In this document: positions 16,389-47,600 of the stretch, one piece after another
Position numbering within the stretch: position 1 is the stretch's first letter
Layout of the letters: each line of letters begins with the position of its first letter
Assembly: GCA_031275735.1 (NCBI GenBank)
Contig: JAISOJ010000023.1
Location: 1-50,213, forward strand
Length of the DNA stretch: 50,213 nt
Direction: 5' to 3'
Source: Dysgonamonadaceae bacterium
Lineage (GTDB): Bacteria; Bacteroidota; Bacteroidia; Bacteroidales; Azobacteroidaceae
The notes under the pieces: model-generated
Database searches by the model: none
Told to the model about the DNA's origin: nothing
The model's input: the letters and a program-made list of their open reading frames with translations, nothing else
Made by a program: the position numbers and the translations under genes

Positions 16389-16521
16389 AATGAGTAAACG
16401 AGTAAACAAGTTGACGAGTAAACAAGTAAACAAGTTGACGAGTAAACAAGTAAACAAGTTGACGAGTAAACAAGTAAACGAGTTGACGAGTAAACAAGCA
16501 AACGAGTTGACGAGTAAACGA
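16389..16521 (-). repeat. 24-bp tandem array between btuB and the BtuG-like gene
   Basis: Units beginning GACGAGTAAACAAG recur at 16413, 16437, 16461, 16485 and 16509 with a diverged unit at 16389, a strict 24-base period. On the minus strand this encodes eight-residue repeats (TRQLVYLF) in frame with the lipoprotein gene. The bases from 16522 to 16569 encode a leader (MKHSC...) that recurs at 20530 in another operon. There are no unique spacers, so this is not a CRISPR array. Confidence 0.9.
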
Positions 16522-19369: not shown

Positions 19370-20500
19370 ATGAAAAAGACAAATGTTATATTTCTATTAT
19401 TATTATTGAGCTTTCCGGCTTTTGTGCCGGCTCAGTACGGCTTGCAATCAGGATTAAATATGTTCAGGCCGGAAGATGTAATCGTTAAACAACAAGTAGA
19501 ATATAAGGAACCTGGACGGACAGGAGCAAACGTCCTCTGGGATTTCAGCCGGCTCAATGTTGTCAATGACGAATATGAATTGGTTTATTCTGCTTATAAT
19601 GACACGGTTATTATCGGAACGGAACATTTAACCGCTTATCATTATGCCCTACAAAACGATTCTTTGCTGTTGTGGGGATTTGAGAATCAAACGACAAAAC
19701 TGCGTAATGTACAACCGGAACTGCTTCTGAAATTTCCGTTCCATTACGGCGATACAACCTACAGTTACTATTATGCGCACGGCAAATACGGCAACCGCTT
19801 GGAGTTGGACGCGATGGGAAGTCTTGAAACCGTAGCGGATTCCTACGGCATGATGATTCTTCCCAGTAAGGATACGCTCAAACAGGTATTGCGTACCCGC
19901 ACACTGAAATACATCGCAGAAGATACCCGGCCGATTGGCGATAATTATTACGAAAAAATGGAGCATCCGCTGAATCTGTCTTCCGACAGTATCCGTTTCC
20001 GCATTCAAAATGATTCGGTGGTTTTTGTTGTAGAAACCTTCCGCTGGTACGAAAAAGGCTACCGCTATCCGGTATTCGAAACTGTCCGGAGTTGGGAACA
20101 ATATTCCGGCACAGCGGATTACGAATTTTTGGCAACGGCTTTCTTCTACCCTCCGCAAGAACATTATTACTTGGAGGAGGATGCGGATAATCTCGCACTG
20201 TTAGCCAATGAAGAAAATAATGTTACGGATCCGTGGGCAGGATTGAACTACGATTTGTATCCCAACCCGGTAAAGAACGTCAACCTGAATGTGGAGATAT
20301 ACCTGCCGAAAAACGCTCAGGGTGTTCTCCTTCAATTGCGCAACACAATGGGCTTGATCGTTTTAGATCAAAATTTGGGTGCATATCCTGAAGGGATGCA
20401 TAGTTTTCAAGTCGATACATGGAACCTGCCGGTTGGCAATTATATCCTGGATATCTGGTTGGATGAAAAATTAATCAGTGAAATAATCATGAAACGATGA
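19370..20500 (+). CDS. T9SS-sorted exported protein, first gene of the Rhs locus
   Basis: This 376-residue protein has a signal peptide (1-21, ending VPAQ) and a T9SS sorting domain at about 300-376 (YDLYPNPVKNVNLNVEIYLPK ... LPVGNYILDIWLDEKLISEIIMKR). The body is beta-rich with repeated aromatic strands (YELVYSAYNDTVI, LLLWGFENQ, FRWYEKGYRYPVFETVRSWEQ) and matches no family I recognise. Its stop overlaps an ATG (ATGA) opening the leader of the next gene. Since it alone in the locus has a sorting signal, I infer that it may anchor or escort the downstream Rhs proteins; this is a hypothesis from gene order. Confidence 0.8.
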   Translation: MKKTNVIFLLLLLSFPAFVPAQYGLQSGLNMFRPEDVIVKQQVEYKEPGRTGANVLWDFSRLNVVNDEYELVYSAYNDTVIIGTEHLTAYHYALQNDSLLLWGFENQTTKLRNVQPELLLKFPFHYGDTTYSYYYAHGKYGNRLELDAMGSLETVADSYGMMILPSKDTLKQVLRTRTLKYIAEDTRPIGDNYYEKMEHPLNLSSDSIRFRIQNDSVVFVVETFRWYEKGYRYPVFETVRSWEQYSGTADYEFLATAFFYPPQEHYYLEEDADNLALLANEENNVTDPWAGLNYDLYPNPVKNVNLNVEIYLPKNAQGVLLQLRNTMGLIVLDQNLGAYPEGMHSFQVDTWNLPVGNYILDIWLDEKLISEIIMKR

Positions 20501-20529
20501 AAAGGTTTACTAATAAAAAATTACACAGT

Positions 20530-20619
20530 ATGAAACATTCATGTTTAGCAAACGCCCAAGAGCATGAAAATGCGTATTCGTTTACTCGTCAACTTGTTTA
20601 CTCGTTAACTTATTTACAT
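20530..20619 (+). repeat. Leader repeat (MKHSC...YSFTRQLV) before the Rhs shell gene
   Basis: The spacer encodes, in frame with the next gene, MKHSC then QEH.N.YSFTRQLVYS, and is closely similar at DNA level to the minus-strand segment 16569-16501 in front of the BtuG-like gene; ATGAAACATTCATGT opens both but for the last base. Only one to one-and-a-half copies of the 24-bp GTTTACTCGTCAACTT-type unit are present here. In both places an ATGA overlap with the preceding stop lies upstream and the real signal peptide starts downstream. Confidence 0.8.
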
Positions 20620-21717
20620 ATGAAAAAGCTCTTAATTACTATTGCCTGTCTATTCGGATTTGTTGCTTTGCTTCATTCGCAGCAAGAATCCATTCAACGC
20701 TTGGGCATCAAATCGCCGGAAGTGGCTGCATTTGAGCGGCTGGGCGAAATCCCTGTTGATATTTACACCGGAGTTCCCAAAATTTCCATTCCGATTTATA
20801 CCGTCAGGTCGGGCGATATAGAACTGCCTATCACATTGGATTATCATGCAGTTGCAATCAAAGTAGACCAGGAAGCTACCTGGGTAGGATTGAATTGGAT
20901 ATTGAATGCGGGAGGGGTTGTTTCCACACAAAGGACCTCCATTTATCTGAAACCTGATGTTACCGATGAAGATTGGAAATCTCTATATTCAAAATATAAC
21001 TATTCTGTCGGATATAACCCCGATATTGACCAAACTTATTATCTAGCTGGAAATCACGGCGGAATGCCCAGTAGTTACGGTTATAATTTATTTGACTGTG
21101 AAAACCGGGATTACGATATTCCCCGGGGATTATCAGAAGTGCTTGTTAAAAGACAAGGAGGTGAGTCGCAATTGTTTAGAGCCAACTTTGCAAATAAAAG
21201 CTTTAAATTTGTTTATCATCGCTTGCAAAACAGGTTTATTGTCGTGGGTAAAGATGAAAAAGTAAAAATATCCGGTGGCGTCAGTTGTTTTGGGTGTAGC
21301 GCTTATATTAGTAATATAACAGACGCTAATGGCGTTAAATACTATTTCACTGAAACTGAGGTCAATTCTACAAGTTATAATAATTACGCACCGGCAGCGG
21401 TCGCTCATTATCTGACAGGGCTTACTTCACCTTCAGGCAGTACTATTACATTAAGTTATAAAAAATACGATGGAATCAAGAATCTAGCTACAGTGTCGCA
21501 AAAAATATATAACGGCCATAGGGGGAAATGTTCCAGTTGTGTAGAAACAAACATTACTTCCGCGCCAACCATATATAATTCGTACTTGCATGAAATTAAA
21601 GCGGATAATGTGGTTGTTCGTTTCAATGTAGGAAGCAGGATTGATATGAGGGGAGATCCCAAAAGTTGGAAAGCATCAATATTTATCGTAAGGAAAGCGA
21701 CAATTCGGAAACGTTGA
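20620..21717 (+). pseudogene. Rhs shell protein, N-terminal part (frame lost near 21664)
   Basis: The chosen ATG gives a signal peptide (MKKLLITIACLFGFVALLHSQ); a longer start at 20497 overlaps the previous stop but adds the repeat-encoded leader. The protein continues with a sequence typical of large Bacteroidetes Rhs-associated proteins (GEIPVDIYTGVPKISIPIYTVRSGDIELPITLDYHA ... WVGLNWILNAGGVVSTQ). The frame stops at 21717 in unrelated residues (SIFIVRKATIRKR). In the frame one base back, LESINIYRKESDNSETLIKTIRF continues the protein naturally. One missing A in the AAAA run at 21661-21664 explains the break. Either a sequencing indel or a true mutation would do this. Confidence 0.8.
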
Positions 21718-24215
21718 TAAAAACCATTCGTTTCAATTACGAATATTTTGGACAAAATACAACCGGCGGTAATACGATTTATGACACATATTTTCCAAAC
21801 CATTTACCCCAATACAATCAATACTATAATGATGACGTGATTTATAAACGCCTGAAATTAACTTCCATTCAGGAAGAAGTAGTTAACGAGCAAGGACAAA
21901 CAAAGAAGTTACCGCCCTATCAATTTAATTATTCCGGTACGCCGCCTGCCAAAAGCTCTGCGGCTGTTGATTACTGGGGCTTTTATAACGGACAGGAAAA
22001 TGAAAGCAAATATCCGGAAACCGGACACTTTAACGATCGTGCAATAGGGCATATCTTAATTCCTAACCCAACAACCATTGAAGAAAATAGTACAAATGCA
22101 CATCCTTCCGATTTGATAAATATGGCATGGGCAAACAGGAAGTTTAATCCAAATACTGTTTCCTCGGGTATGTTGTCAGGTATTACTTATCCTACCGGAG
22201 CAACTACCTCATTCTCTTTCGAACCCCATGAATTTACCAATTATGAATATACCGATCTGGGTGTTTCCGATACGGGTGTTCCCGATACAGAAACTCTTGG
22301 AGCTATTTATTATTCGGATGTGAACGGTTCTTGGCCGGAAGAAAGGCATATTCCTAAAGAATTCTGGATCTATCAGGATACAGACGTAACTATTAAGGTT
22401 CATTTCAAGAAATCTTTCGTAAAGTCATGGAAAGATATGTTAGATGCGACAGCAAGCCTGTTTGTCTATCCAAATACAACGGAATCTAACGGAAATTACA
22501 CGCTCCACACCCAATGGAAACTATCGGAAATGGATGCGAAGGACGAAAACAACAACATTGAACTGACTGAAACAATAAATCTTCCCGCCGGCGAGTACCG
22601 TATTGAAGCTTTTCATTCTGTGCCGCAAACCGATCCTATAAACGATCCAGACTTTAGGGGCGAAACTTATGTCCATATGAGAGTTTCAACAACTCGAACC
22701 CCTTCGAATAGTACAAAATACAAAGGAGCCGGAGTAAGGATAAAAAAAATAAAACAGGATCGTACAGTTACGGAATATAGATACAATAATGAAAACGGAA
22801 GTACGTCAGGGGTTTTAATGTCGCCGATAAAATATGCACAACTAAAATCGGCAATTCTTCAAGATTCGGAAATGTACAGAAATCCTCAAGGTGGTTATCA
22901 ATCTCCTTCTAGGGCGAAAACTTTTACCTATTGGCTGCAGGGTTCGGACAATATGGTCCCTGCTTATGAAAACAAAATGGGATATGGCAGGGTGGAGGTT
23001 CATACAAAAGGTAATAGTATGAGCATAGAAAAGAACGGTAAAATAGTCTATGAGTATTGGAACAAAAAACACACTCCGTTCTCCGATTTTTTTCGTCCTT
23101 TGGAAGATCCTCGAAATGGTAACCTTCTGAAAGAATCGGTTTACGATATATCCGGTAAATTGATAAAAGAAATCAATAATACGTATCAGATACTGGATAA
23201 GGAATCTTTCCTGATTAATGCCGTGGCAGAAGATATTTATGAGGGGCCTAATGGACCTTGCGTCACAATGAGTTATTTCCCTCACAATTTATATGCAGAT
23301 GCTTGCCCTACAGGTAGAATGTTGCTATACTTATATCGTTCGACAAAATACTGGATAGAATTAACCGGACGCACGGAAAAATTGTTTGCCGGTAGTGATT
23401 CAATCGTTAATACTACAACTTATACCTATAATCCTTCGAATCTCTCCTTATATTCTGTCAGTCAAAAAATGAAAGATAACGAATACGATGTGACTTATTT
23501 CACTTATCCGACGGATTATAAATATACCGGCGAAAATTATCCGGCGAAATTAGTAAATAAAAATATCGTGAACGTTCCGATAGAAATTGTAAAAGGAATA
23601 GAAAAAGGGAACGATGTGCTTATTACATCGGGAGTTGTCAACAAATACGACGATTACGGGAATTTGATTGAAAACCTGAATTTGGATATAAAAGAACCGG
23701 TCGCTCTCGGCAGTTTCAAGTTTTCCAACAAAAGCAAAAAAGGCATACTCCCCAACAGCACGACCGACTCTACAAGTTATGCATTACATTCGGGCTATGT
23801 TTCCAAGGCTACATGCAGTTATGCAGATGGTAACCCTATATATATCAACAAAAAAGACGCCTATAAGGTAGTTTATCTTTGGGGATACCGGAAACAATAT
23901 CCGGTGGCCAAGATAGAAGACGTTACCTACGACCAGGTCGAAGCTGTTTTGGGACAAACCTTGATAGACAGGATAGCAAACGCCGCTACTTTTTCCGGCG
24001 CCGACTTGACGTCTGTCAATAATCTTCGGATGACATTGACTGCCGCACGGGTTACAACCTATACCTACATCCCTTTGGTCGGTATGCAAACCATGAGAGA
24101 TCCGCGCGGCGTAAAAACAAGTTATTTCTACGACGCTTTCGGCCGCCTGCAAGCCGTGAAGAATGAAAACGATAAAACTATTGAGATGAACGAATATCAT
24201 TATAAAGACCAATAA
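21666..24215 (+). pseudogene. Rhs shell protein, C-terminal part (continuation after frameshift)
   Basis: These 849 residues continue the frame broken at 21661-21664. They include beta-rich segments (PPYQFNYSGTPPAKSSAAVDYWGFYNGQ, MLSGITYPTGATTSFSFEPHEF, GAGVRIKKIKQDRTVTEYRY) and a C-terminus with YD-type repeats (GVKTSYFYDAFGRLQAVKNEND ... NEYHYKDQ). Together with the upstream part the intact protein would have about 1200 residues. It ends in a YD repeat and the next gene opens with more YD-type sequence after 11 bases, so the two proteins look like halves of one Rhs cocoon. The apparent start here is a TTG in the middle of the reading frame, so it is not a natural start. Confidence 0.8.
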
Positions 24216-24226
24216 AAAGAACAGTC

Positions 24227-27200
24227 ATGAAAAAACAGGTATATATAATCATATTGTCGCTGATTGCAATTCTTGATTTAATTGCTCAATCGGTTGACAA
24301 AAATTACATCAAGACAAGCGTCTATCTGGACAATACGGAAACAAGCGCTTTGAAAACCGTCCATTATTTCGACGGCTTGGGACGCCCGGTGCAAACCGTA
24401 CAACAGAATGTGGGACCGGCCAACAATAACCAGGACTTGATAACCGTACAGGAATATGACTATTGGGGTCGCGAATCGAAAACATGGTTACCGTTATACA
24501 GGACAAGCAATACAGGAAATTACTATGGCGGCATCATTCCCAATGATGCAAAAAGTCAATACGGCAATGACGCATTTGCTTATTCCGAAATACTTTATGA
24601 AGCCTCGCCTCTGAACCGGATTAGAAAACAGTATGGACCCGGACAGGCGTGGAGAACGGGAAGCGGTCATCCCGTCGCGACGGATTACCTGGTAAATAAC
24701 GCTTCTTATCCCTGCGGTTATTTCTATGTTTCCGGCGACAACCTGGTAAGCAAAGGTTACTACGCTAACGGCAGTTTAACGGTAACAAAAACGACGGATG
24801 AAGACGGTAATATATCTTACGAATTTACGGACAAATGGAATCGAGTAGTCCTGCAAAGACAGATGAACAAAACAATCCCTCACAATACTTACCTGGTATA
24901 TGACGACAGGGGTAATTTACGCTTTGTATTGCCGCCTGCGGCATCGGATTCCCTGCTCACTTTGGCGCAAACGACTTACAATCCCTCCGCTAACACGGCA
25001 TTGAAAAATTACGCCTACATTTACAAATACGATCACCGGAAACGTTGTACGGAAAAAAAACTGCCTGGAGCCGATCCCGTATTTTATGTTTATGATAAGG
25101 CCGACCGCTTGATTTTTTATCAGGACGGCGAACAACGATCGGACAGCAGCTGGGTTTTCATTAAATACGATGCCTCGAACAGGATAATCCTTACCGGCGT
25201 TTGGAAAAAAAGTCGAAAAACACAAGCAAATTTGGTTAGTCAATTTCAAAACACGTTCGCTACAGAAGGGGTTTCCACGGCAGGAGCTTACGGCTATACG
25301 TGGAATACCTTATCGGGAGTGTCCGGCAGTATGGTGTTGCAAGCCAACTACTACGATAATTCGGATAACTTTCTGAATACACTGGACGCCGCCACCAAAG
25401 GGAAAGTATCTTATGCCACTCTTTCGGGTTACGACACAAGATATGCCAACAGCAGCTTTCCGCTCACTTGGTCGAAAGGTTTGCTGGTAGGAACCCGTGT
25501 CAAGATGTTGGACGATACCTCAAAAGAAATCGTTACCGCCTTTTATTACAACGCTAAAGGCAGGGTGGTGCAGCAAAAATCGACGAATCTACAGGGCGGG
25601 AGCGAAGCGGAATATGTTGCTTACTCTTTTACCGGTAAACCGAAAAAAACGCAAAAAGTGCATACGGCTACCGGTAAACCTGCGATTACGGAAGTCTATA
25701 CTTATGCCTACGATCACGCCGACCGGCTAACCACAACCAAGTATAAATTGGACAATAATGCAGAGATTACGTTATCTACCCTGTCGTATGATAATTTCGG
25801 CAGGGTAAATGAAAAGAAACTGCATGGAGGAAAAGAAACAATCGCTTACACTTACAATATTCGTAGCTGGCTAAAAACGATTAATTCCGCCCATTTCAAC
25901 GAAAAACTGTATTATCACGAATCGTATGCAGGCAATGTAACGGCCTATAACGGTAATATTTCGACAACGTATTCACAGTGGACAATTTCAGAAAGAGAAT
26001 TTTTTATGCGTGGGTATGTTTATACTTACGACGGATTAAACCGCTTGACTAAAGCGCAGTATTTTGAAAATTCTACCAAAAGCAGTTTTTTTAATGAGGA
26101 ATTGGTCTACGACAAACAGGGCAATATAATTGAGTTGAAACGTAACGCTCCGGTTTCGCCGGGAAGCACAACCTATACGACCGAACAATTATATTTACAT
26201 TATACAGGCAATCAGTTGAAAGCTACCGGTACCCAGCCGGGCGTTTTCACTGCGGCTACCCTGAATACATACAATAAAAACGGCAGTATGACGGCATATT
26301 CGAGGTTTAAAATTCCCGAAATCCGATACAATGTATTAAATTTACCGGATAAAATAAAGTTTGGCGTAGGCCATACGATTCAAAACAGTTATGATGCTTT
26401 GGGAGTGAAAAGAAAAACGGAACATATCACAGTGGAAAACAGGATGGTTGTCGGTATAGCTTCGGCGAAAGACGTCTTGCCGTCGGCGCTTGATGCAGCC
26501 ATACCTACCTCATCTCCTGCTTCTTCGTCCGCTTCATCATCATCTTCCGCCGCTTCGGCTCCGGCTGCTGCCATATACGCAACGGTTGTCGATAAAACCG
26601 TAACCGATTATTGCGGAAATATTATTTACGAAAACGGCAATCTGAAATACATCCTGAATCCGGAAGGTTACGTAACAAAAAGCGGAAGTACGCCGGTTTA
26701 CAACTACTATCTGAAAGACCATCTGGGCAACAACAGGGTAGTAACGTCGGTCAACGGCAGCAACTATACGGTTATTCAGAAAACGGATTATTATCCTTTC
26801 GGCAAGCCTTATCCCGACGCACTCAATCCGGAACGCCAACCCTACAAATTCGGCGGGAAGGAATACGACGAAATGCACGGGCTGAACTGGTACGATTTTC
26901 ATGCACGCTACTACTCCGATATCATCCTCAGTTTCCTGACAATGGACCCGATGGCGGAAAAATATTACTGGATTTCCCCGTATGCGTACTGCTTGAATAA
27001 TCCGGTAAGATTTACCGACCCATTCGGAATGGATGTTTGGGAAATCAATAATCTTGGTGAAATAACAAAGCACATAAAAGACAAAACGCAAGATGCATTT
27101 TATATGGTTGCAAAGGATGCAGATGGGAATTATCAACGCACATTTACTACCGATATGGATGGTAATAAAAATTACAATTCTATTTCGTTTGAATATGGAA

Positions 27201-27622
27201 CTGTAACATCTGTTCAAGAAAAAAATGTCAAAACAGATGTGGGAGATGTTACGTTAACAATGTTCAATATTAAGGGAGACGCGTATGCTACTCAATTATT
27301 TGAATTTATGTCTAATCCCGGTGTGACAACAAACGTAGAATGGTCTCATGATAAAATAGGGACTGAAAAATCTGAAAAAAATGTCGTTGGCACCATACAT
27401 CTTCCGAAAAACACAGTTCAAGGATATTATCTGTCAAACAAAGGTTATACAATTAGAGAAGATAACCACAGTCATCCTGGAGGGACTGAAATACCTTCTC
27501 CTGGAGATAAAAGGACTGCCGCATATATTCTTGAGAAAAATCCCAGGACATTACTTAATATTTATATTCCTCAAAAGAAGAAATATATACCGTATAATGC
27601 CAGTGGAAGTATTACAAAATAA
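24227..27622 (+). CDS. Rhs polymorphic toxin with JAMM-like metalloprotease tip
   Basis: This 1131-residue protein has a signal peptide (1-21, ending LIAQ), a DUF6443-like N-terminus (TVHYFDGLGRPVQTVQQ), YD repeats (YDHRKRCTEKKLPG, YDKADRLIFY, YDGLNRLTKAQYF), a Ser/Ala-rich low-complexity insert near 760-780, and an Rhs core at about 850-938 (YYPFGKPYP, YKFGGKEYDEMHGLNWYDFHARYYS ... NNPVRFTDPFGMD). The roughly 190 residues after the core are the variable tip. It contains H1081-S-H1083 followed by seven residues, then S1091-x2-D1094, which is exactly the JAMM (JAB1/MPN) zinc motif; an upstream Glu in NVEWSHDK may be the catalytic acid. I infer a zinc protease toxin. A putative immunity gene follows after 15 bases. 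Confidence 0.88.
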   Translation: MKKQVYIIILSLIAILDLIAQSVDKNYIKTSVYLDNTETSALKTVHYFDGLGRPVQTVQQNVGPANNNQDLITVQEYDYWGRESKTWLPLYRTSNTGNYYGGIIPNDAKSQYGNDAFAYSEILYEASPLNRIRKQYGPGQAWRTGSGHPVATDYLVNNASYPCGYFYVSGDNLVSKGYYANGSLTVTKTTDEDGNISYEFTDKWNRVVLQRQMNKTIPHNTYLVYDDRGNLRFVLPPAASDSLLTLAQTTYNPSANTALKNYAYIYKYDHRKRCTEKKLPGADPVFYVYDKADRLIFYQDGEQRSDSSWVFIKYDASNRIILTGVWKKSRKTQANLVSQFQNTFATEGVSTAGAYGYTWNTLSGVSGSMVLQANYYDNSDNFLNTLDAATKGKVSYATLSGYDTRYANSSFPLTWSKGLLVGTRVKMLDDTSKEIVTAFYYNAKGRVVQQKSTNLQGGSEAEYVAYSFTGKPKKTQKVHTATGKPAITEVYTYAYDHADRLTTTKYKLDNNAEITLSTLSYDNFGRVNEKKLHGGKETIAYTYNIRSWLKTINSAHFNEKLYYHESYAGNVTAYNGNISTTYSQWTISEREFFMRGYVYTYDGLNRLTKAQYFENSTKSSFFNEELVYDKQGNIIELKRNAPVSPGSTTYTTEQLYLHYTGNQLKATGTQPGVFTAATLNTYNKNGSMTAYSRFKIPEIRYNVLNLPDKIKFGVGHTIQNSYDALGVKRKTEHITVENRMVVGIASAKDVLPSALDAAIPTSSPASSSASSSSSAASAPAAAIYATVVDKTVTDYCGNIIYENGNLKYILNPEGYVTKSGSTPVYNYYLKDHLGNNRVVTSVNGSNYTVIQKTDYYPFGKPYPDALNPERQPYKFGGKEYDEMHGLNWYDFHARYYSDIILSFLTMDPMAEKYYWISPYAYCLNNPVRFTDPFGMDVWEINNLGEITKHIKDKTQDAFYMVAKDADGNYQRTFTTDMDGNKNYNSISFEYGTVTSVQEKNVKTDVGDVTLTMFNIKGDAYATQLFEFMSNPGVTTNVEWSHDKIGTEKSEKNVVGTIHLPKNTVQGYYLSNKGYTIREDNHSHPGGTEIPSPGDKRTAAYILEKNPRTLLNIYIPQKKKYIPYNASGSITK

Positions 27623-27637
27623 AGATGGAGGTATGTT

Positions 27638-28153
27638 ATGAAAAAAGAAATCCTATTATTGCTGTTCATACTTTTTGCCATGAATGTATTTGCAAAACAT
27701 CCTAAAAATTACACTGACAGTCTAAGTATTGAAAATACTGACTTAATCATCATGCTCGACAGCATTATTATTCACGAAAAAAGCTGTGATTATTATAGTG
27801 AAGTTTTAATTTTTGTTATTAATTTAGAACCACATAACAATGCAATTCTGATCGGTTCTATAGGAAATAGAGTTTTCTATGATGGTAGACAATTAGGCTG
27901 TTTTGTATATCAAAATCATTTATTTGTTGTTGAAGGAAAACTATTGGATATTACTTTATTTAAAAAGACAGGTAAAAAGAAATACAATATTTTTTCAAAG
28001 TCAAGAAGCGGATACAATAAGAAGACCAAAGAGTGGTTTTTGGATGCAGATGCATTTCAAAATGACTCTTACTCATATTGGTACTACTTCTATAAAGACG
28101 GAGAATTTACATTTGATTCTAAAAGTACTTGTTGCAACTCCACTACGGAATAA
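27638..28153 (+). CDS. Putative periplasmic immunity protein 1
   Basis: This 171-residue protein has a signal peptide (MKKEILLLLFILFAMNVFAK) and a beta-rich body with a terminal CC pair; no family is recognised. A GGAGG sequence 11 bases ahead of the ATG is unusually good for this group of bacteria. Position directly after the Rhs toxin, small size and lack of similarity are the usual marks of an immunity gene. The signal peptide suggests that protection is needed in the periplasm or at the surface, not in the cytoplasm. Function is inferred from position only. Confidence 0.65.
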   Translation: MKKEILLLLFILFAMNVFAKHPKNYTDSLSIENTDLIIMLDSIIIHEKSCDYYSEVLIFVINLEPHNNAILIGSIGNRVFYDGRQLGCFVYQNHLFVVEGKLLDITLFKKTGKKKYNIFSKSRSGYNKKTKEWFLDADAFQNDSYSYWYYFYKDGEFTFDSKSTCCNSTTE

Positions 28154-28171
28154 TATTTTTATTAGATAATT

Positions 28172-29203
28172 ATGCAGAAGCAATTTAAATACTATTTTTT
28201 ATCTATCTTTTTCTGTTTATATGCTTTGAATTCTCTCTGTGCACAGACAGGAAAAGCCCGTTTGACAAATGCCGAAATAAGCCTGACGATGCCCAAAATC
28301 ATCCAGACGACAGACTACTACTCCTTCGGGATACCCTTCCCAAACAACGGAAAAGCACCGGAAAGGCAGCCTTACAAATTCGGAGGAAAGGAATACGGCG
28401 AAATGCACGGGCTGAACTGGTACGATTTTCATGCACGCTACTACTCCGATATCACCCTCAGTTTCTTGACTCCTGATCCTTTGTGTGAGAAATATTACTG
28501 GATTTCCCCGTATGCTTATTGTGCCAATAATCCGGTGAACAGAATAGACCCGACAGGAATGGATTGGTTTTGGGATACAGATAAAACCCGTCAATATGAC
28601 CCCAATATAACTTCGCAAGATCAATTAAAAGAAGGACAAACCTACATTGGTGCAACGGATGTCGTAAAAAATAAAGAAGGAAATGTGATTGAAGATTATC
28701 GAAAAGATGGCAGTATAATGTTTTCGAATGAAACATCAGCCTATAATCGAATGTGGTCGCAAGCAACAAAGAAAAATGTTGAAGAAAGCGGATATGCTTT
28801 GAAAAATGGTAAATTTTTAGTCATGCCGGATTATAAAAATAAAATCAATGACGTAGATATTGTTGATTATAATTATTCTATAGGTAAAGACGGTATCCTT
28901 TCTAATGGAAGCGGAGAAAAGTTCAGAATTGTCGGGAATGTACATACCCACCAAGATCCTTCGGGTAATCCAGAGCCATCGTTCTGGACAGGAACAGGTT
29001 GGGGTGATGCAGGGCATTCAAAAGCAATGGGAGGATTACCTGTTATAACAATAGGACATGACGGAAAAGTACATGGAGCATTTTGGTCTGTTAAAGATAA
29101 TGGATTTAGACGCATCCCTGGTTTTGGAAATCGACAAGATTTATTATCAGGAAAAACCAGATTAGTTCCGTGGTTAATAACATATCCTACAGGAGGAAAA
29201 TAA
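28172..29203 (+). CDS. Mini-Rhs: exported orphan core with alternative JAB-like tip
   Basis: This 343-residue protein opens with a signal peptide (1-24, ending SLCAQ), then about 40 residues of linker leading into a truncated Rhs core (YKFGGKEYGEMHGLNWYDFHARYYS ... NNPVNRIDPTGMDW). The core DNA is nearly identical to that of the full Rhs gene (around 26841-26960). The tip differs: residues 254-279 read VGNVHTHQ...GWGDAG, with H258-T-H260, Ser270 and Asp279. That resembles JAB-like toxins but not the exact JAMM spacing. Without the YD shell it cannot be caged as a full Rhs. It is either a donor cassette for recombination or a stand-alone secreted toxin. The intact signal peptide favours expression. 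Confidence 0.8.
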   Translation: MQKQFKYYFLSIFFCLYALNSLCAQTGKARLTNAEISLTMPKIIQTTDYYSFGIPFPNNGKAPERQPYKFGGKEYGEMHGLNWYDFHARYYSDITLSFLTPDPLCEKYYWISPYAYCANNPVNRIDPTGMDWFWDTDKTRQYDPNITSQDQLKEGQTYIGATDVVKNKEGNVIEDYRKDGSIMFSNETSAYNRMWSQATKKNVEESGYALKNGKFLVMPDYKNKINDVDIVDYNYSIGKDGILSNGSGEKFRIVGNVHTHQDPSGNPEPSFWTGTGWGDAGHSKAMGGLPVITIGHDGKVHGAFWSVKDNGFRRIPGFGNRQDLLSGKTRLVPWLITYPTGGK

Positions 29204-29206
29204 GTT

Positions 29207-29749
29207 ATGAAACATTTAATTTCTTTTATGATTCTATTCGTGATGCTTATGAATTGTTCATGTAATCAAAAAATAGAGTTACGTGATCGGTTAAATTTGC
29301 AAGCCGATGTGGAAAATGTAATAAATAATTATATACAAGAGCATTCACAGTTTAATACTTTCATATTGCAACCGACTCAAGGACTTGAGCAAAATGAAAC
29401 ATTTGCTATGAAGCAAGGTTTTTTGTTGGGACCCGGTTATGAAACTGTTATAGAAAAATGTCAACCAACATTTTATTTCGATATTTCTGACAAGCGAATC
29501 TTTTATATCTCTGAAATTGATAAATTGACGCAAGGGTATAGAAATACATGGATTGTTAAAAATGAACCGGATAGTATGATTATAGTTGATGATTGGATAA
29601 TTAAAAATTCACCGGAATTGTTTATACATCGTGCCATATATTTTTATTATAATAAATTAAAAAAAATAGAAGTGAATTTACGTCCGGATACAATTTTTGC
29701 ACCACGACTTTTGGAAAGTTCAATTCATTTTGAAAACATAAAAGAATAG
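29207..29749 (+). CDS. Putative immunity lipoprotein 2
   Basis: This 180-residue protein has a hydrophobic N-terminus with two cysteines (MLMNCSCNQK); one of them probably receives a lipid. The body is mixed alpha/beta (ENVINNYIQEHSQF, ISDKRIFYISEIDKLTQGY, PDSMIIVDDWIIKN) with no recognised family. It follows the mini-Rhs stop by three bases, so the two are cotranscribed. It is the likely immunity partner of the second tip, anchored in the periplasm. The call rests on position and size. Confidence 0.6.
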   Translation: MKHLISFMILFVMLMNCSCNQKIELRDRLNLQADVENVINNYIQEHSQFNTFILQPTQGLEQNETFAMKQGFLLGPGYETVIEKCQPTFYFDISDKRIFYISEIDKLTQGYRNTWIVKNEPDSMIIVDDWIIKNSPELFIHRAIYFYYNKLKKIEVNLRPDTIFAPRLLESSIHFENIKE

Positions 29750-29789
29750 TTGCAAGTTAATGTTTCGGATGCCTCGAAACTGTTATAGA

Positions 29790-29825
29790 ATTATCCCGAT
29801 GGTCAGAGACGATCATTGGGATAAT
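29790..29825 (+). terminator. Terminator-like hairpin after the Rhs locus
   Basis: ATTATCCCGATGGTC pairs with GATCATTGGGATAAT over 15 positions with two G-T pairs and a 6-base loop. The T run that follows is interrupted (TTATTTA). Its place 41 bases after the last gene of the locus and before the rpsA promoter supports termination. Confidence 0.6.
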
Positions 29826-29893
29826 TTATTTAGCGAAAGCGAGTTTGCTTTTAAAGTTTTGGATATAAGTCGAAAAAAGTCGTTTAAATTTCA

Positions 29894-29923
29894 TTGATAA
29901 TCAGATTTAAAACCGTACCTTTG
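29894..29923 (+). promoter_or_regulatory. Promoter of rpsA (TTG-N19-TACCTTTG)
   Basis: TTG (29894-29896) and TACCTTTG (29916-29923) are 19 bases apart, the consensus Bacteroidetes promoter arrangement. The leader to the rpsA ATG would be about 50 bases. Confidence 0.8.
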
Positions 29924-29982
29924 CAACCGTTTTATTATGACATCATAAAGTCTAACTTATTAATTAACAATTTATTTTAAAC

Positions 29983-31968
29983 ATGAGTGAAGAATTAAAC
30001 AAAGAAGAAACAGTAAACGTTGAAGGAGTTCAAGAAATGTCAACGCCTGTTGAGGAGACTCCTGTCCTTGAAAAAGAAGCAAAAATTTCGGTAGACGATT
30101 CGGTAAAACCGCTGGAAGAACCCGTAAAAAAGGAATCAACACCCAAAATCAAAAAAGCGCCGGTTTCTCAAGAAAACTTTGATTGGGACGCTTACGAAAA
30201 AGGCGAATCTTACGGAGATGTAACGAAAGATCAATTGATCGAGACTTACAACAAATCGTTAAGTAAAATCAATGACCGCGAAGTGGTTATAGGAACTGTT
30301 ACTTCTATGAATAAACGAGAAGTAGTAGTAAACATCGGTTATAAATCCGACGGAGTAGTTTCGATGAATGAATTCCGCTATAACCCCGACCTGAAAGTGG
30401 GCGACGAAGTGGAGGTTTATATTGAAAGCCAAGAAGATAAGAAAGGACAATTAATACTTTCCCATAAAAAAGCGCGCGCTACTCGTTCTTGGGACAGGGT
30501 AAATACTGCTCTTGAAAACAACGAAATTATTAAAGGTTATGTAAAATGCCGCACAAAAGGCGGTATGATTGTGGACGTATTCGGCATCGAAGCATTCCTG
30601 CCGGGTTCGCAGATTGATGTTAAACCGATTCGCGATTACGATATATTCGTAGATAAAACAATGGAATTCAAGGTAGTAAAAATCAACCAGGAATTTAAAA
30701 ATGTGGTCGTTTCGCATAAAGCCCTTATCGAGGCCGAATTGGAAAAACAAAAGAAAGACATTATTGCCAAATTGGAAAAAGGACAAGTACTGGAAGGTAT
30801 TGTCAAGAACATTACCACTTACGGCGTATTCATCGACTTGGGAGGCGTAGACGGATTAATTCATATTACCGATTTGAGTTGGGGACGTGTTAGCCATCCG
30901 GAAGAGGTGGTGAAATTAGATGAAAAAATCAATGTCGTTATTTTGGATTTCGATGACGATAAAAAAAGAATTGCTTTAGGTTTGAAACAATTAACGCCTC
31001 ATCCGTGGGATGCTTTGGACGAAAACCTGAAAGTGGGCGATATCGTAAAAGGGAAAGTAGTCGTAATGGCAGATTACGGCGCATTCATTGAAATAGCGCC
31101 GGGCGTTGAAGGACTTATACATGTGTCTGAAATGAGTTGGACGCAACATTTAAGAAGCGCTCAAGATTTCATGAAAGTAGGCGACGACGTCGAAGCCGTT
31201 ATTTTGACTTTAGATCGTGATGAAAGGAAAATGTCGTTGGGTATTAAACAATTGAAATCCGACCCATGGGAAGACGTCGAAACCAAATATGCCATTGGAA
31301 GCAAGCATACCGCCAAGGTTCGCAATTTCACTAATTTTGGCGTATTTGTTGAGATCGAAGAAGGCGTGGAAGGATTGGTCCATATTTCCGACCTTTCTTG
31401 GACAAAAAAGATCAAACATCCGAGCGAATTCACTTCCATTGGTTCCGATATTGAAGTACAAGTATTGGAAATTGACAAGGAAAATCGACGTTTGAGTTTG
31501 GGACACAAACAATTGGAGGAAAACCCATGGGATGTTTTCGAAACTTTGTTTACGGTAGGTTCTATTCACGAAGGAACCATTATCGAACTGCTGGACAAAG
31601 GCGCCGTTATTTCCCTTCCTTATGGTGTAGAAGGATTTGCAACTCCAAAACATTTGATCAAAGAAGACGGATCTTCTGCTCAGTTGGATGAGAAATTGAA
31701 CTTCAAAGTAATCGAATTTAACAAAGATTCGAAACGGATTATTCTTTCTCACAGCCGTATTTTTGAAGATGAGCAACGGGTTGAAACGAAAAAAGAAGTC
31801 GCGGCGGCTACGGTAGAAAAGAAAGCAGAAAAGAAATCGAAAAAATCGAAAGAGAAAAAAGAAGAAGAGATTTCTCAACAACCGGTTATGGAAAAAACTA
31901 CTTTAGGCGATATTTCCGAATTAGCCGAGTTGCGGGAAAAAATGGAAGACGAAAACGACAAAAAATAG
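29983..31968 (+). CDS. rpsA: Ribosomal protein S1
   Basis: This 661-residue protein helps mRNA bind to the 30S subunit. After an acidic, proline-rich N-terminal extension (1-75) six S1 RNA-binding repeats can be followed, starting near residues 100, 186, 270, 355, 440 and 530 (for example YGVFIDLGGVDGLIHITDLSW, YGAFIEIAPGVEGLIHVSEMSW, FGVFVEIEEGVEGLVHISDLSW). The second and sixth repeats are the most diverged. A Lys/Glu-rich tail ends the protein. It is longer than the 557-residue E. coli protein because of both extensions, as in other Bacteroidetes. It stands alone between a strong promoter and a strong terminator. Confidence 0.96.
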   Translation: MSEELNKEETVNVEGVQEMSTPVEETPVLEKEAKISVDDSVKPLEEPVKKESTPKIKKAPVSQENFDWDAYEKGESYGDVTKDQLIETYNKSLSKINDREVVIGTVTSMNKREVVVNIGYKSDGVVSMNEFRYNPDLKVGDEVEVYIESQEDKKGQLILSHKKARATRSWDRVNTALENNEIIKGYVKCRTKGGMIVDVFGIEAFLPGSQIDVKPIRDYDIFVDKTMEFKVVKINQEFKNVVVSHKALIEAELEKQKKDIIAKLEKGQVLEGIVKNITTYGVFIDLGGVDGLIHITDLSWGRVSHPEEVVKLDEKINVVILDFDDDKKRIALGLKQLTPHPWDALDENLKVGDIVKGKVVVMADYGAFIEIAPGVEGLIHVSEMSWTQHLRSAQDFMKVGDDVEAVILTLDRDERKMSLGIKQLKSDPWEDVETKYAIGSKHTAKVRNFTNFGVFVEIEEGVEGLVHISDLSWTKKIKHPSEFTSIGSDIEVQVLEIDKENRRLSLGHKQLEENPWDVFETLFTVGSIHEGTIIELLDKGAVISLPYGVEGFATPKHLIKEDGSSAQLDEKLNFKVIEFNKDSKRIILSHSRIFEDEQRVETKKEVAAATVEKKAEKKSKKSKEKKEEEISQQPVMEKTTLGDISELAELREKMEDENDKK

Positions 31969-44654: not shown

Positions 44655-47600
44655 ATGAAAAAGAACTTACTTTTATTTGTATTGGTGTGGATGACAAATT
44701 GGTCTTATTCTCAAACGAAAGAATGGATACATTATGATGATGGTACAAATTATGACGGTTCACCCTATGGCGCGAATGTATCAGACTATGATATTGCCAT
44801 AAAATATGATCCGGAAGACATTCAGGAATTGGGAATTACAACCATTCATTCGATTAAAGTCTATAATACGGTTTCGCCTCCGCCTCAAAAAGCTACTGTA
44901 AAAATATGGCAAGGAACCGATGCCGCAAACGAAGTTGTTTCCAAAGATTACGCCCCTGTCGACGGTTGGAATGAGATAGAATTAACCGATTCATATACTG
45001 TAAATAATATGCAGGAATTATGGATAGGAATACGCTACAAAGCCTTTTCTTCTTATCATAATATCGCCCGCTTTGATGCTGTGCTTGACCATCCGGGAAA
45101 AGGGAACTTGCTGCGTTCGACCAATGGCGATACTTACGGCGAATGGAGACCCAATTATGAATTTGGCGATTGGAACATTCAATTTTATGCGACTGTTTCT
45201 CAATTGCATAATATAACGCTCAACGTCGTTGAAGAAAAAGAAGGAAGTCTCGTACCGGTCACAGATGCTGTTGTTTCTATTGATAAACAACTCAATCCCC
45301 AGGGCGTATATACTTTTGATAATTTACCGGCAGGAGAACATAAATATATCGTTTCCAAAAACGGCTATGCTACCGAATCCGGAACTTTTACTTTGCCTGC
45401 TACGTCTGCTTTGACCGTTACGCTGTCCGAAGGAGAATCGCTCCAATATCCGGTCACATTTACAGTTGTCGATGAAAACAACCAGGCGGTAACAAGCGCA
45501 GTGATTACCATTAACGGAACAAAATTAGCTCCAGGCGTTTATACGACGACTTTGGAAGCCGGCATCTATGAATACAGGATTGAAAAGCTGGGGTTTTCCA
45601 ATGGAAACGGGAAAATTGTCCATATCGCAGGCGGTACAACCGAAACGGTACAATTATCCGAAGCCGGAGATGTTCTGATTAAAGCAACAATCAACAATTC
45701 CGAAAATGCTTTATTTTACTATAACGGATCTATCTATACCGCTAATTGGACAGAAAGTACAGGGCTATTGCATGTTTATACTCCATCGGGAACCGAACTA
45801 ATTCCGGCGGGAACGGTAACTTTAACCAACCTGCCTGATAATCAGGGAGAAAATTTTTATGGTTTTGCCTCCGACGGTACATTTATTTACGCCGTCAATC
45901 AAAGTCCTTTTATCTTTGTCATCGATCCATCTTCCATGTCTGTTACGGATTTAATAGAAATAGTCGATTATCCCACATCCGGCGGGCCGGTTACCATTGC
46001 TTACGATGCTGAACAGGACGGTTTTTGGTACTCTTTTCTGCATGATACACAGGTTGTTTTCATAGAAAAAGACGGAACAATCACCGACCGGATTTTGTCA
46101 GGTCCTTCCCATACGGTCATGGGATTAGCCTATGATGATACCAGCGACGGAGGTCCTTATTTATGGGCTTCGACAGGAGGAGCCTCCGCAAACAATTATG
46201 CTAAAATAGGTCGCTGGAATATTTACACAGGGGAATATACCGAAGAAATTAAAAACGTCCCCCACATTATGGGAGTTCCAACCGGCGGAAACTATATGGG
46301 GTCAATCTATCATACACAAGATATTAGCAACGGACGACAACTCTTACTGGGTGTTTTGCCGTCGCAAACAACCTTGTTCGGATACGATTTGAATAACACT
46401 TTCCCTATCCAATCGCCTGACAAAGTGAACCGTTTTGCCTGTACTCCGGTAGCTTCCGGCGCTTTAAGCGCCCAATTAACATGGAAAAATCCGGAACGAA
46501 ACCTTAATGGAACTACCCTAAGCCATTTAAACAACATCAATATTTATCGCAACAATAAATTAGTCCACTCCATTTCCAATCCGGTTATCGGAGAGGAAGA
46601 AAATTGGACAGACAACACCATTGTTTCCCCGAATATTTACAGTTATAAAATTACGGCGGAAAACAATGAAGGAGAAGGAATTTCCACTATCCGTACGGCT
46701 TTTGCCGGACAAGACATTCCGGATACGGTGAGCAATCTGACATTGGTCAAAGAAAATCAAACCGCCCGGATAACCTGGTCTGCTCCGGCGAAAGGAGAAA
46801 ACAAGGGGTGGATAGATCCGACTGCTTTGACATACAAGGTAGTTCGCAAACCGGACAATATCGTTCTATCGGAGAATGTCACGCAAACAAACTATGAGGA
46901 CAACACGATTCCTTTCCTGAGTATGTATTCTTACGTAGTCAGTGCGAAAAACGAGCAAGGAGAAGGCAAACCGGTAACTTCTAACGCCGTTTTACTGGGA
47001 AACACTGTGGCTATTCCTTGGCAGGAAACTTTCAGTTCTCGGGAAAACCTCCCCTTGTGGACGATTATTGATGCAAACAACGACAATGATACGTGGGCGT
47101 ATAATCCTTACAACGGAGGCGGTTCCATGCAATGCGCCTCTTCGATAGGAAACGACGATTGGTTGATTTCTCCGCCTGTTTCATTAGAAAGCGGGAAAAA
47201 ATACCGCTTGCAATGGTCTGCCGCGTCGGTAAGCGGCGTGCAAGCGCGTTATGAGCTGGCAATAGGCATAGATGCAACGGTGGAAAGTCAGAACGTTTTG
47301 GCTTCTTACAATGTAAACGAGTTGGGATTTATTCCGGAAGTTCGAGAAATAACCGTTCCTACATCAGGGATATATCATTTTGCCTGGCATTGCTTCGACG
47401 AAATGCCGGATGAAACCATAGGAACAGCTATCAACGCTATTTCATTGGAAATTGCAAGTACGACCGACTTGTCGGCGATAGCTATTTCCGGTAAGAAAGA
47501 ATTATCCGAAGGCGAAGAAGGTGCATTTACCGTCCGTGTAAAAAACAGAGGCCTTAACCCCGTAAATTCGTTTCTCGTTGACCTGTTAGTCTATAATGAA

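What the first reader, a model, noticed from the sequence alone, without database searches (positions are those of the whole stretch)
19370..29749. Rhs polymorphic-toxin locus with a T9SS-sorted first gene and a split shell
Seen: a T9SS sorting-domain protein, an Rhs shell protein ending in a YD repeat, a second Rhs protein with YD repeats, core and variable tip, then two toxin-tip/immunity modules, all on one strand with short gaps. The two Rhs proteins have signal peptides but no sorting domain, and only the first gene has one. Inference: the small T9SS protein could anchor or carry the two-part Rhs cocoon at the cell surface, a delivery route different from T6SS.
Basis: partly seen in the sequence, partly recalled or inferred. 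Interest (0 to 1): 0.85.

Follow-up and report, generated by a model that had tools for sequence, protein, structure and literature searches.

The report
Rhs toxin locus with T9SS partner
A gut bacterium carries a toxin system in three parts, a protein tagged for the type IX secretion machine and two halves of a toxin shell, and relatives keep these parts together while shuffling their order, which points to a little-studied way of putting toxins on the cell surface.

Summary
The locus is real, with one correction: gene B is broken by a frameshift near 21,650-21,670 in this assembly. Around it stand A (19370-20500, T9SS sorting domain), C (24227-27622, DUF6443, Rhs core, JAB-like tip), a second core-tip ORF and two putative immunity genes. 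The A-B-C association is strong: in the own genome all three DUF6443 loci carry A and B; of 62 A genes, 60 lie beside B and/or C on the same strand, in several orders. Two relatives fuse B and C in one frame, so they look like halves of one shell. In 28 sampled DUF6443 loci without A, 13 of 30 adjacent genes carry a T9SS sorting domain against 3 of 97 others. A and C co-vary; B is shuffled. SprA is in the own genome; a T6SS sheath gene was not found. Against T9SS dependence: three SprA-negative genomes carry DUF6443. Apibacter rhs genes beside sorting-domain genes are in print (PMC8125069). New variant of a known kind; the carrier or anchor mechanism is plausible, not shown.

The parts
19370..20500 (+). 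gene A: 376 aa, signal peptide, own beta-rich domain, C-terminal T9SS type A sorting domain
   Evidence: 27-member family alignment
20620..21717 (+). gene B, first piece (signal peptide, N-terminal part of the Rhs-type shell protein); start codon chosen by eye
   Evidence: ORF 20497-21717 matches B model 3-358
21666..24215 (+). gene B, second piece in another frame; ends in an RHS/YD repeat
   Evidence: matches B model 367-965; RHS_repeat 5.9e-06
24227..27622 (+). gene C: signal peptide, DUF6443, YD shell, Rhs core, Toxin-JAB1 tip (1131 aa)
   Evidence: relatives of the C profile in PDB: YenC2 1.4e-15, Rhs 7q97, teneurin-like
27638..28153 (+). putative immunity gene of C, signal-peptide-like start
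   Evidence: position and N-terminus only; no family match above cut-off
28172..29203 (+). second core-tip ORF with its own signal peptide; tip not recognised, holds a HxH motif (by eye)
   Evidence: Rhs core 2.3e-15; the only one of 30 orphan core-tip ORFs with a signal-peptide-like start
29207..29749 (+). putative immunity gene of the second tip, lipoprotein-like start
   Evidence: position and N-terminus only

Best explanation
A-B-C is a modular, Sec-exported polymorphic toxin system of Bacteroidales that is tied to the type IX secretion system. B and C form a two-chain Rhs-type shell (as TcB and TcC do, recalled) around the variable tip at the end of C. A, or an unrelated T9SS-sorted protein in its place, is the surface partner: exported and fixed at the outside by T9SS, it carries out, anchors or displays the B-C shell. 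Displaced tips with immunity genes are kept downstream. Shown here: linkage, fusions, sorting domains, tip polymorphism, shuffling of B. Inferred: the shell assembly, the physical A-BC contact, the export route and the toxic action.
For: Own genome: 3 of 3 DUF6443 loci have A and B, in orders A-B-C, B-A-C, A-C-imm-B. 60 of 62 A genes are beside B and/or C, same strand, none opposite; gap <=119 bp in 59 of 60. Family: A in all 19 DUF6443-positive genomes and in 3 of 26 negative ones. Order sample: 18 of 20 strong A matches (E<1e-50) have DUF6443 within 8 kb on the same strand; the other two stand beside B or a B/C remnant. B-C fusions in L241 and L243. In 28 A-less loci, 13 of 30 adjacent genes have a sorting domain against 3 of 97 others (Fisher p 2e-7), with different N-terminal domains. 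SprA in the own genome and in 58 of 61 DUF6443-positive genomes; T6SSiii TssC in 6 of 61 and not found in the own genome. Tips: 29 of 1596 pairs alike against 1822 of 1830 core pairs. A-C distances correlate, r 0.62.
Against: SprA is nearly universal in the order (324 of 344), so its presence with DUF6443 is no enrichment (p 1). G149, G156 and G255 have DUF6443 but no SprA match: B-C can exist without T9SS. TssC is even a little more frequent in DUF6443-positive genomes (6 of 61 against 10 of 283, p 0.045). 16 or 17 of the 28 A-less loci show no sorting-domain gene directly beside B or C; several are cut by contig ends. Four of eight Rhs-core matches of the own genome lie outside the three loci, without A. 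No convincing solved fold for A's N-terminal domain. In the window itself B is broken, so this copy may not work. The model of a relative's B is only partly confident (pLDDT 62.1, pTM 0.64) and its fold search could not be run.
Confidence: 0.5

Rival explanations
1. A is an independent T9SS-exported surface protein (adhesin, receptor or specificity factor) that works together with the toxin outside the cell, while B-C leaves by another route (vesicles, lysis, or an unknown exporter) and never touches T9SS.
For: B-C pairs stand in three SprA-negative genomes without a sorting-domain gene beside them where read (L226, L233, L234). B and C lack a sorting domain in 57 and 61 full-length copies. 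A-like proteins without any Rhs gene in the stretch read exist (L131-L136, L144), so the A fold has uses of its own.
Against: The near-constant adjacency of A and its co-variation with C more than with B suit a direct partner; unrelated sorted proteins at the same place have in common mainly their export signal.
Confidence: 0.3
2. A (or its stand-in) is a processing or protective factor for the shell at the surface, for example a chaperone-like or self-protection protein rather than a carrier.
For: Co-encoded with B and/or C in 60 of 62 cases; no enzyme family found in A.
Against: Propeller-like and beta-helix stand-ins do not suggest one shared enzymatic or chaperone activity.
Confidence: 0.12
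3. The linkage is ancestral synteny or hitch-hiking on a mobile toxin island and A has no part in it.
For: Rhs loci are known to recombine (recalled); one locus has a shortened A beside a transposase-like gene (L048).
Against: Several gene orders with retained linkage and short gaps, B swapped while A and C stay, and independent sorted proteins in the same position.
Confidence: 0.05

Closest known systems
Apibacter rhs genes beside T9SS type A sorting-domain genes (PMC8125069, 2021; passages read)
   Same: Rhs proteins without T6SS signals, adjacent to genes for type A sorting-domain proteins; the authors suggest T9SS association.
   Different: They describe N-terminal SpvB/TcdB domains; of 18 B homologues here one matches each of these models, weakly (E 0.02-0.05). 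The passages read describe no three-part unit, fused B-C, shuffled B or alternative sorted partners.
TANFOR polymorphic toxins (PMC7073777, 2020; first part of the text and passages read)
   Same: Polymorphic toxins mostly with a Sec signal; neighbourhoods enriched in T9SS sorting-domain genes; proposed by the authors as T9SS substrates.
   Different: No TANFOR match in the seven window ORF translations (NCBIfam); here the carrier part is an Rhs-type shell.
Tc toxin B and C components (YenB/YenC2 in PDB)
   Same: The C profile matches YenC2 (1.4e-15); the B profile matches YenB weakly (0.005); shell in two chains (the TcB-TcC cocoon is recalled).
   Different: Signal-peptide-like starts on both chains and a T9SS-sorted partner; a TcA-like gene was not searched for.
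T6SS Rhs effectors (RhsA, Tse5)
   Same: YD shell, core, variable tip, gene behind the tip; the C profile matches 7q97 (5e-11) and 8cp6 weakly.
   Different: Signal-peptide-like start, no T6SS domain reported by Pfam/NCBIfam, no T6SS sheath gene found in the own genome, shell in two chains.

Membership tests
Rhs/YD polymorphic toxins | YD/RHS repeats and Rhs-associated core before the tip | tested here: met
   RHS_repeat in B (second piece) and C, Rhs_assc_core in C and in the second tip ORF
Rhs/YD polymorphic toxins | conserved core, exchanged tips | tested here: met
   tips alike in 29 of 1596 pairs, cores in 1822 of 1830
Rhs/YD polymorphic toxins | toxic tip neutralised by the downstream gene | not testable with these tools
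   Toxin-JAB1 match only; immunity by position
T9SS type A cargo (gene A) | N-terminal signal peptide | tested here: met
   by eye in gene A; in full-length homologues 50 of 55 by a loose hydropathy rule, 38 of 55 by a strict one; the loose rule also fires in 55 of 97 nearby genes, so weak by itself
T9SS type A cargo (gene A) | C-terminal sorting domain | tested here: met
   below cut-off alone; 20 of 27 family members match at E<=0.1; fold matches 8glk_D and 8qb1_A, E 0.016
T9SS type A cargo (gene A) | host has T9SS | tested here: met
   SprA at G000:C9; other components not searched
T9SS type A cargo (gene A) | surface location depends on T9SS | not testable with these tools
   experiment needed
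T9SS cargo (B and C) | own sorting domain | tested here: not met
   0 of 57 full-length B, 0 of 61 full-length C (HMM from A's sorting domain); no Pfam sorting domain in window B pieces or C
Tc toxin BC component | two-chain cocoon, TcB- and TcC-like | tested here: inconclusive
   C like YenC2, B like YenB only at 0.005; B-C fusions; no complex modelled
Tc toxin BC component | TcA partner | not tested
   no search for TcA was made
T6SS Rhs effector | T6SS present | tested here: not met
   no VipB or TssC match in the own genome (genome 76% complete)
T6SS Rhs effector | T6SS loading domain (PAAR and the like) on the Rhs protein | tested here: not met
   none reported by Pfam or NCBIfam at E<=1
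TANFOR toxins | N-terminal TANFOR domain | tested here: not met
   no match in the seven window ORF translations (that the library holds this model was not checked)

The most novel reading that the evidence does not exclude
A T9SS route for toxins that lack a sorting signal: exchangeable sorted adaptors (A family, propeller-like, beta-helix and others) bring a two-chain, Tc-like Rhs shell to the outer surface, with B as an independently swapped, fast-changing half (perhaps target recognition) and the tip of C as the payload.
Probability: 0.4. Interest if true: 0.85.

Novelty: new variant of a known kind. Interest (0 to 1): 0.62.

Why it matters
Whether T9SS delivers polymorphic toxins has been raised (PMC7073777, PMC8125069) but, in the passages I read, not shown. 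The three-part unit gives a concrete test: one small sorted protein per toxin, present in Dysgonomonas records that are not labelled as metagenome-assembled, natural fusions that mark the shell halves, and interchangeable partners. If right, T9SS would be a route for interbacterial toxins through adaptors rather than through a tag on the toxin.

Tried and rejected
Strict co-occurrence of DUF6443 with SprA was tested and gives nothing (58 of 61 against 324 of 344). PF05943 (VipB) as a T6SS marker was set aside: 0 of 344 while PF17541 found 16 of 344, so it misses the Bacteroidota type. Exported immunity as a sign of the route: 48 of 63 genes behind a tip pass a loose signal test, but so do 55 of 97 other nearby genes (p 0.009); with a strict rule 40 of 63 against 46 of 97, p 0.03: weak. 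Position of B as a clade marker: 16 changes on a quick B tree, 11 on an A tree, not used. Profile comparison of B with C: no convincing match. Anti-phage library: no match in five window proteins. Fold search of B: machine busy. DUF6443 is in no paper of the library; rhs + type ix secretion + yd repeat together in none. Rows dropped: of the 65 rows of the A table, three under 130 bits (L133, L144 and one of two pieces of the A gene in L035) were left out of the 62; duplicates with the same residues 60-120 had been removed before.
Full report
What is there. The features lie on the + strand between a TonB-receptor-like gene on the - strand (named by eye) led by a cobalamin riboswitch and a ribosomal-protein-S1-like gene (by eye). 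A (19370-20500) has a signal peptide, a domain of its own and a weak T9SS type A sorting domain. B follows at once but is broken: its two ORFs lie in different frames and match consecutive parts of one B model, 3-358 and 367-965. C (24227-27622) carries DUF6443, YD repeats, the Rhs core and a Toxin-JAB1 tip. Then come a small protein with a signal-peptide-like start, a second core-tip ORF with its own signal peptide, and a lipoprotein-like gene.

Organism. I recall these as symbionts in termite guts; the inference rests on names and lengths.

Linkage in the own genome. There are three DUF6443 genes and three A genes (one A is reported in three pieces), and each DUF6443 gene has an A and a B beside it: A-B-C in the window, B-A-C on C104, A-C-imm-B on C101. 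A of the window is 64% and 52% identical to the other two. Of eight Rhs-core matches in the genome, four lie in these loci and four elsewhere (C47 twice, C90, C112) on short ORFs without A.

Linkage elsewhere. A search of named genomes gave 35 loci. The family sample (45 genomes) has A in 22 and DUF6443 in 19, all 19 within the 22; the three A-only genomes have only weak matches of a shorter A-like clade. Reading 76 loci and later 12 more chosen for strong A gave 62 A genes over 130 bits, duplicates removed. 60 stand beside B and/or C on the same strand, none has B or C on the opposite strand. The two exceptions are L033 (contig ends 30 bases after A) and L048 (A cut short before a transposase-like gene). 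The nearest B or C is within 119 bases in 59 of 60. Orders include A-B-C (14), B-A-C (13), A-C (9) and A-C-B (5); the rest are partial, fused or with broken or extra pieces. Seven of the 62 lack a sorting-domain hit: four end at the contig, L048 and L116 are short, L243 is full length but divergent. Most of these loci were found with A itself as the query, so they say little about DUF6443 loci without A; those follow.

Order-wide. In 344 genomes DUF6443 occurs in 61, and 20 A matches have E<1e-50 (the A search scored at most five candidates per genome). 18 of the 20 have DUF6443 within 8 kb on the same strand; the other two are L237 (beside a 159-aa remnant that joins the start of B to the core of C) and L239 (beside B). 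Most listed DUF6443 matches of the order have no A nearby, so A is a partner of some lineages only.

What stands in for A. I fetched 28 of the listed DUF6443 loci without a strong A (L207-L234). Genes between B and C or directly upstream: 13 of 30 carry Por_Secre_tail at E<=0.001, in at least 11 loci. Of 97 other genes in the same loci, 3 do, one of them near Rhs genes too (L231) (Fisher p 2e-7). Contig-edge genes were kept in the first set and left out of the second. The partners differ: 566-734 aa proteins that look propeller-like by eye (L207, L211, L216, L223, L224; propeller models match three of these five, weakly in L211 and L216), 702-726 aa proteins with only the sorting domain recognised (L227, L228, L230), a beta-helix protein (L218), a Flg_new protein (L232) and a pair of remote A relatives (L222).

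Two halves of one shell. Two relatives carry B and C in one ORF: L241 (2116 aa, B 4-1013, C 1031-1895) and L243 (B 1-832, C 908-1570, cut by the contig), each right behind A. The C profile matches YenC2, teneurin-like proteins and T6SS Rhs proteins in the PDB (its best hit, E 1e-30, is an insect salivary protein); the B profile matches YenB only weakly (E 0.005). A model of a relative's B is beta-rich with low overall confidence (pLDDT 62.1, pTM 0.64).

A's fold. The model of window A is good (pLDDT 87.8, pTM 0.79). Among its PDB matches are the T9SS sorting domains 8glk_D (with NucA substrate) and 8qb1_A (mirolase), probability 1.00, E 0.016 each, at ranks 41 and 42; better-ranked are FlgD-type and other beta proteins and low-TM matches such as transglutaminases. 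The matched range is not printed; from the 82-95 aligned columns I take it to be the last domain. Nothing convincing covers the N-terminal domain.

Modules. In 29 loci with all three parts, A and C distances correlate (r 0.62), A-B and B-C weakly (0.21 and 0.23, permutation p 0.005 and 0.003). In one genome two loci share A at 88%, C at 68%, B at 31%; in two different genomes loci share B at 68%, A at 34%, C at 45% (L019/L020 and L027/L118). B is best conserved towards its end and around positions 51-100. So B seems to be exchanged on its own. A target-recognition role for B is inference.

Route. SprA is present in the own genome. T6SSiii TssC is not found there and occurs in 6 of 61 DUF6443-positive genomes, against 10 of 283 others (p 0.045, a slight excess). 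SprA is in 324 of 344 genomes of the order, and three SprA-negative genomes (G149, G156, G255) carry DUF6443. At the loci read from them (L226, L234, L233) B and C stand without a sorting-domain neighbour found. The shell pair is thus not bound to T9SS everywhere; where T9SS exists, a sorted partner is common. B and C have signal-peptide-like starts by a loose rule (57 of 57, 58 of 61), by a strict rule 44 of 57 and 45 of 61; the loose rule also fires in 55 of 97 other genes nearby.

Prior work. PMC8125069 (passages read) says most Apibacter rhs genes lie beside genes for type A sorting-domain proteins and are probably T9SS-associated; PMC5913662 (passages) had counted Apibacter Rhs genes among potential T6SS-secreted proteins. 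PMC7073777 (first part of the text and passages read) reports an excess of sorting-domain neighbours for TANFOR toxins. The idea of T9SS-linked polymorphic toxins is therefore not new; the three-part unit, the fused halves, the shuffled B and the exchangeable sorted partners were not in the passages I read. My searches listed no paper that by title or abstract is about them; the library holds open-licence papers and no preprints.

Verdict. Ordinary as an Rhs toxin locus, unusual in its anatomy.

Noticed in passing
18918-18708 (-): Cobalamin riboswitch (Rfam RF00174, 94 bits) before the TonB-receptor-like gene 18599-16566.
   Followed up: yes
28172-29203: The second core-tip ORF has its own signal peptide; 1 of 30 orphan core-tip ORFs with such a start. 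It could be exported without the rest of the shell.
   Followed up: partly
L032, L050, L051, L123: B lies in two or more ORFs here as well: B is broken in several of these assemblies, by decay or by assembly error.
   Followed up: no
L131-L136, L144: A shorter A-like clade (about 326-346 aa; sorting-domain-like ends in the three printed) found away from Rhs genes in the stretches read, e.g. beside a ruvC-like gene; possible origin of A.
   Followed up: partly
16392-16519 and 20580-20617: Short tandem repeats at the 5' ends of two ORFs that also share their first residues.
   Followed up: no
27500-27999 and 29500-29999: G+C falls to 0.28 over tip and immunity genes against 0.41-0.47 over most of C.
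   Followed up: no
L237 6454-6933: 159-aa ORF joining the start of B to the core of C beside an intact A: looks like a deletion remnant.
   Followed up: partly
PMC7712824 (passage): A table lists a P. gingivalis protein (PG99 46 kDa antigen, 423/405 aa) described as RHS repeat protein in a paper on a sorting-domain protein; possibly an A-type protein.
   Followed up: no
G000:C47, C90, C112 (L011-L013, L018): Four further Rhs-core pieces of the own genome on short ORFs, outside the three A-B-C loci.
   Followed up: partly
44655-49598: Long ORF of 1647 aa on the + strand.
   Followed up: no
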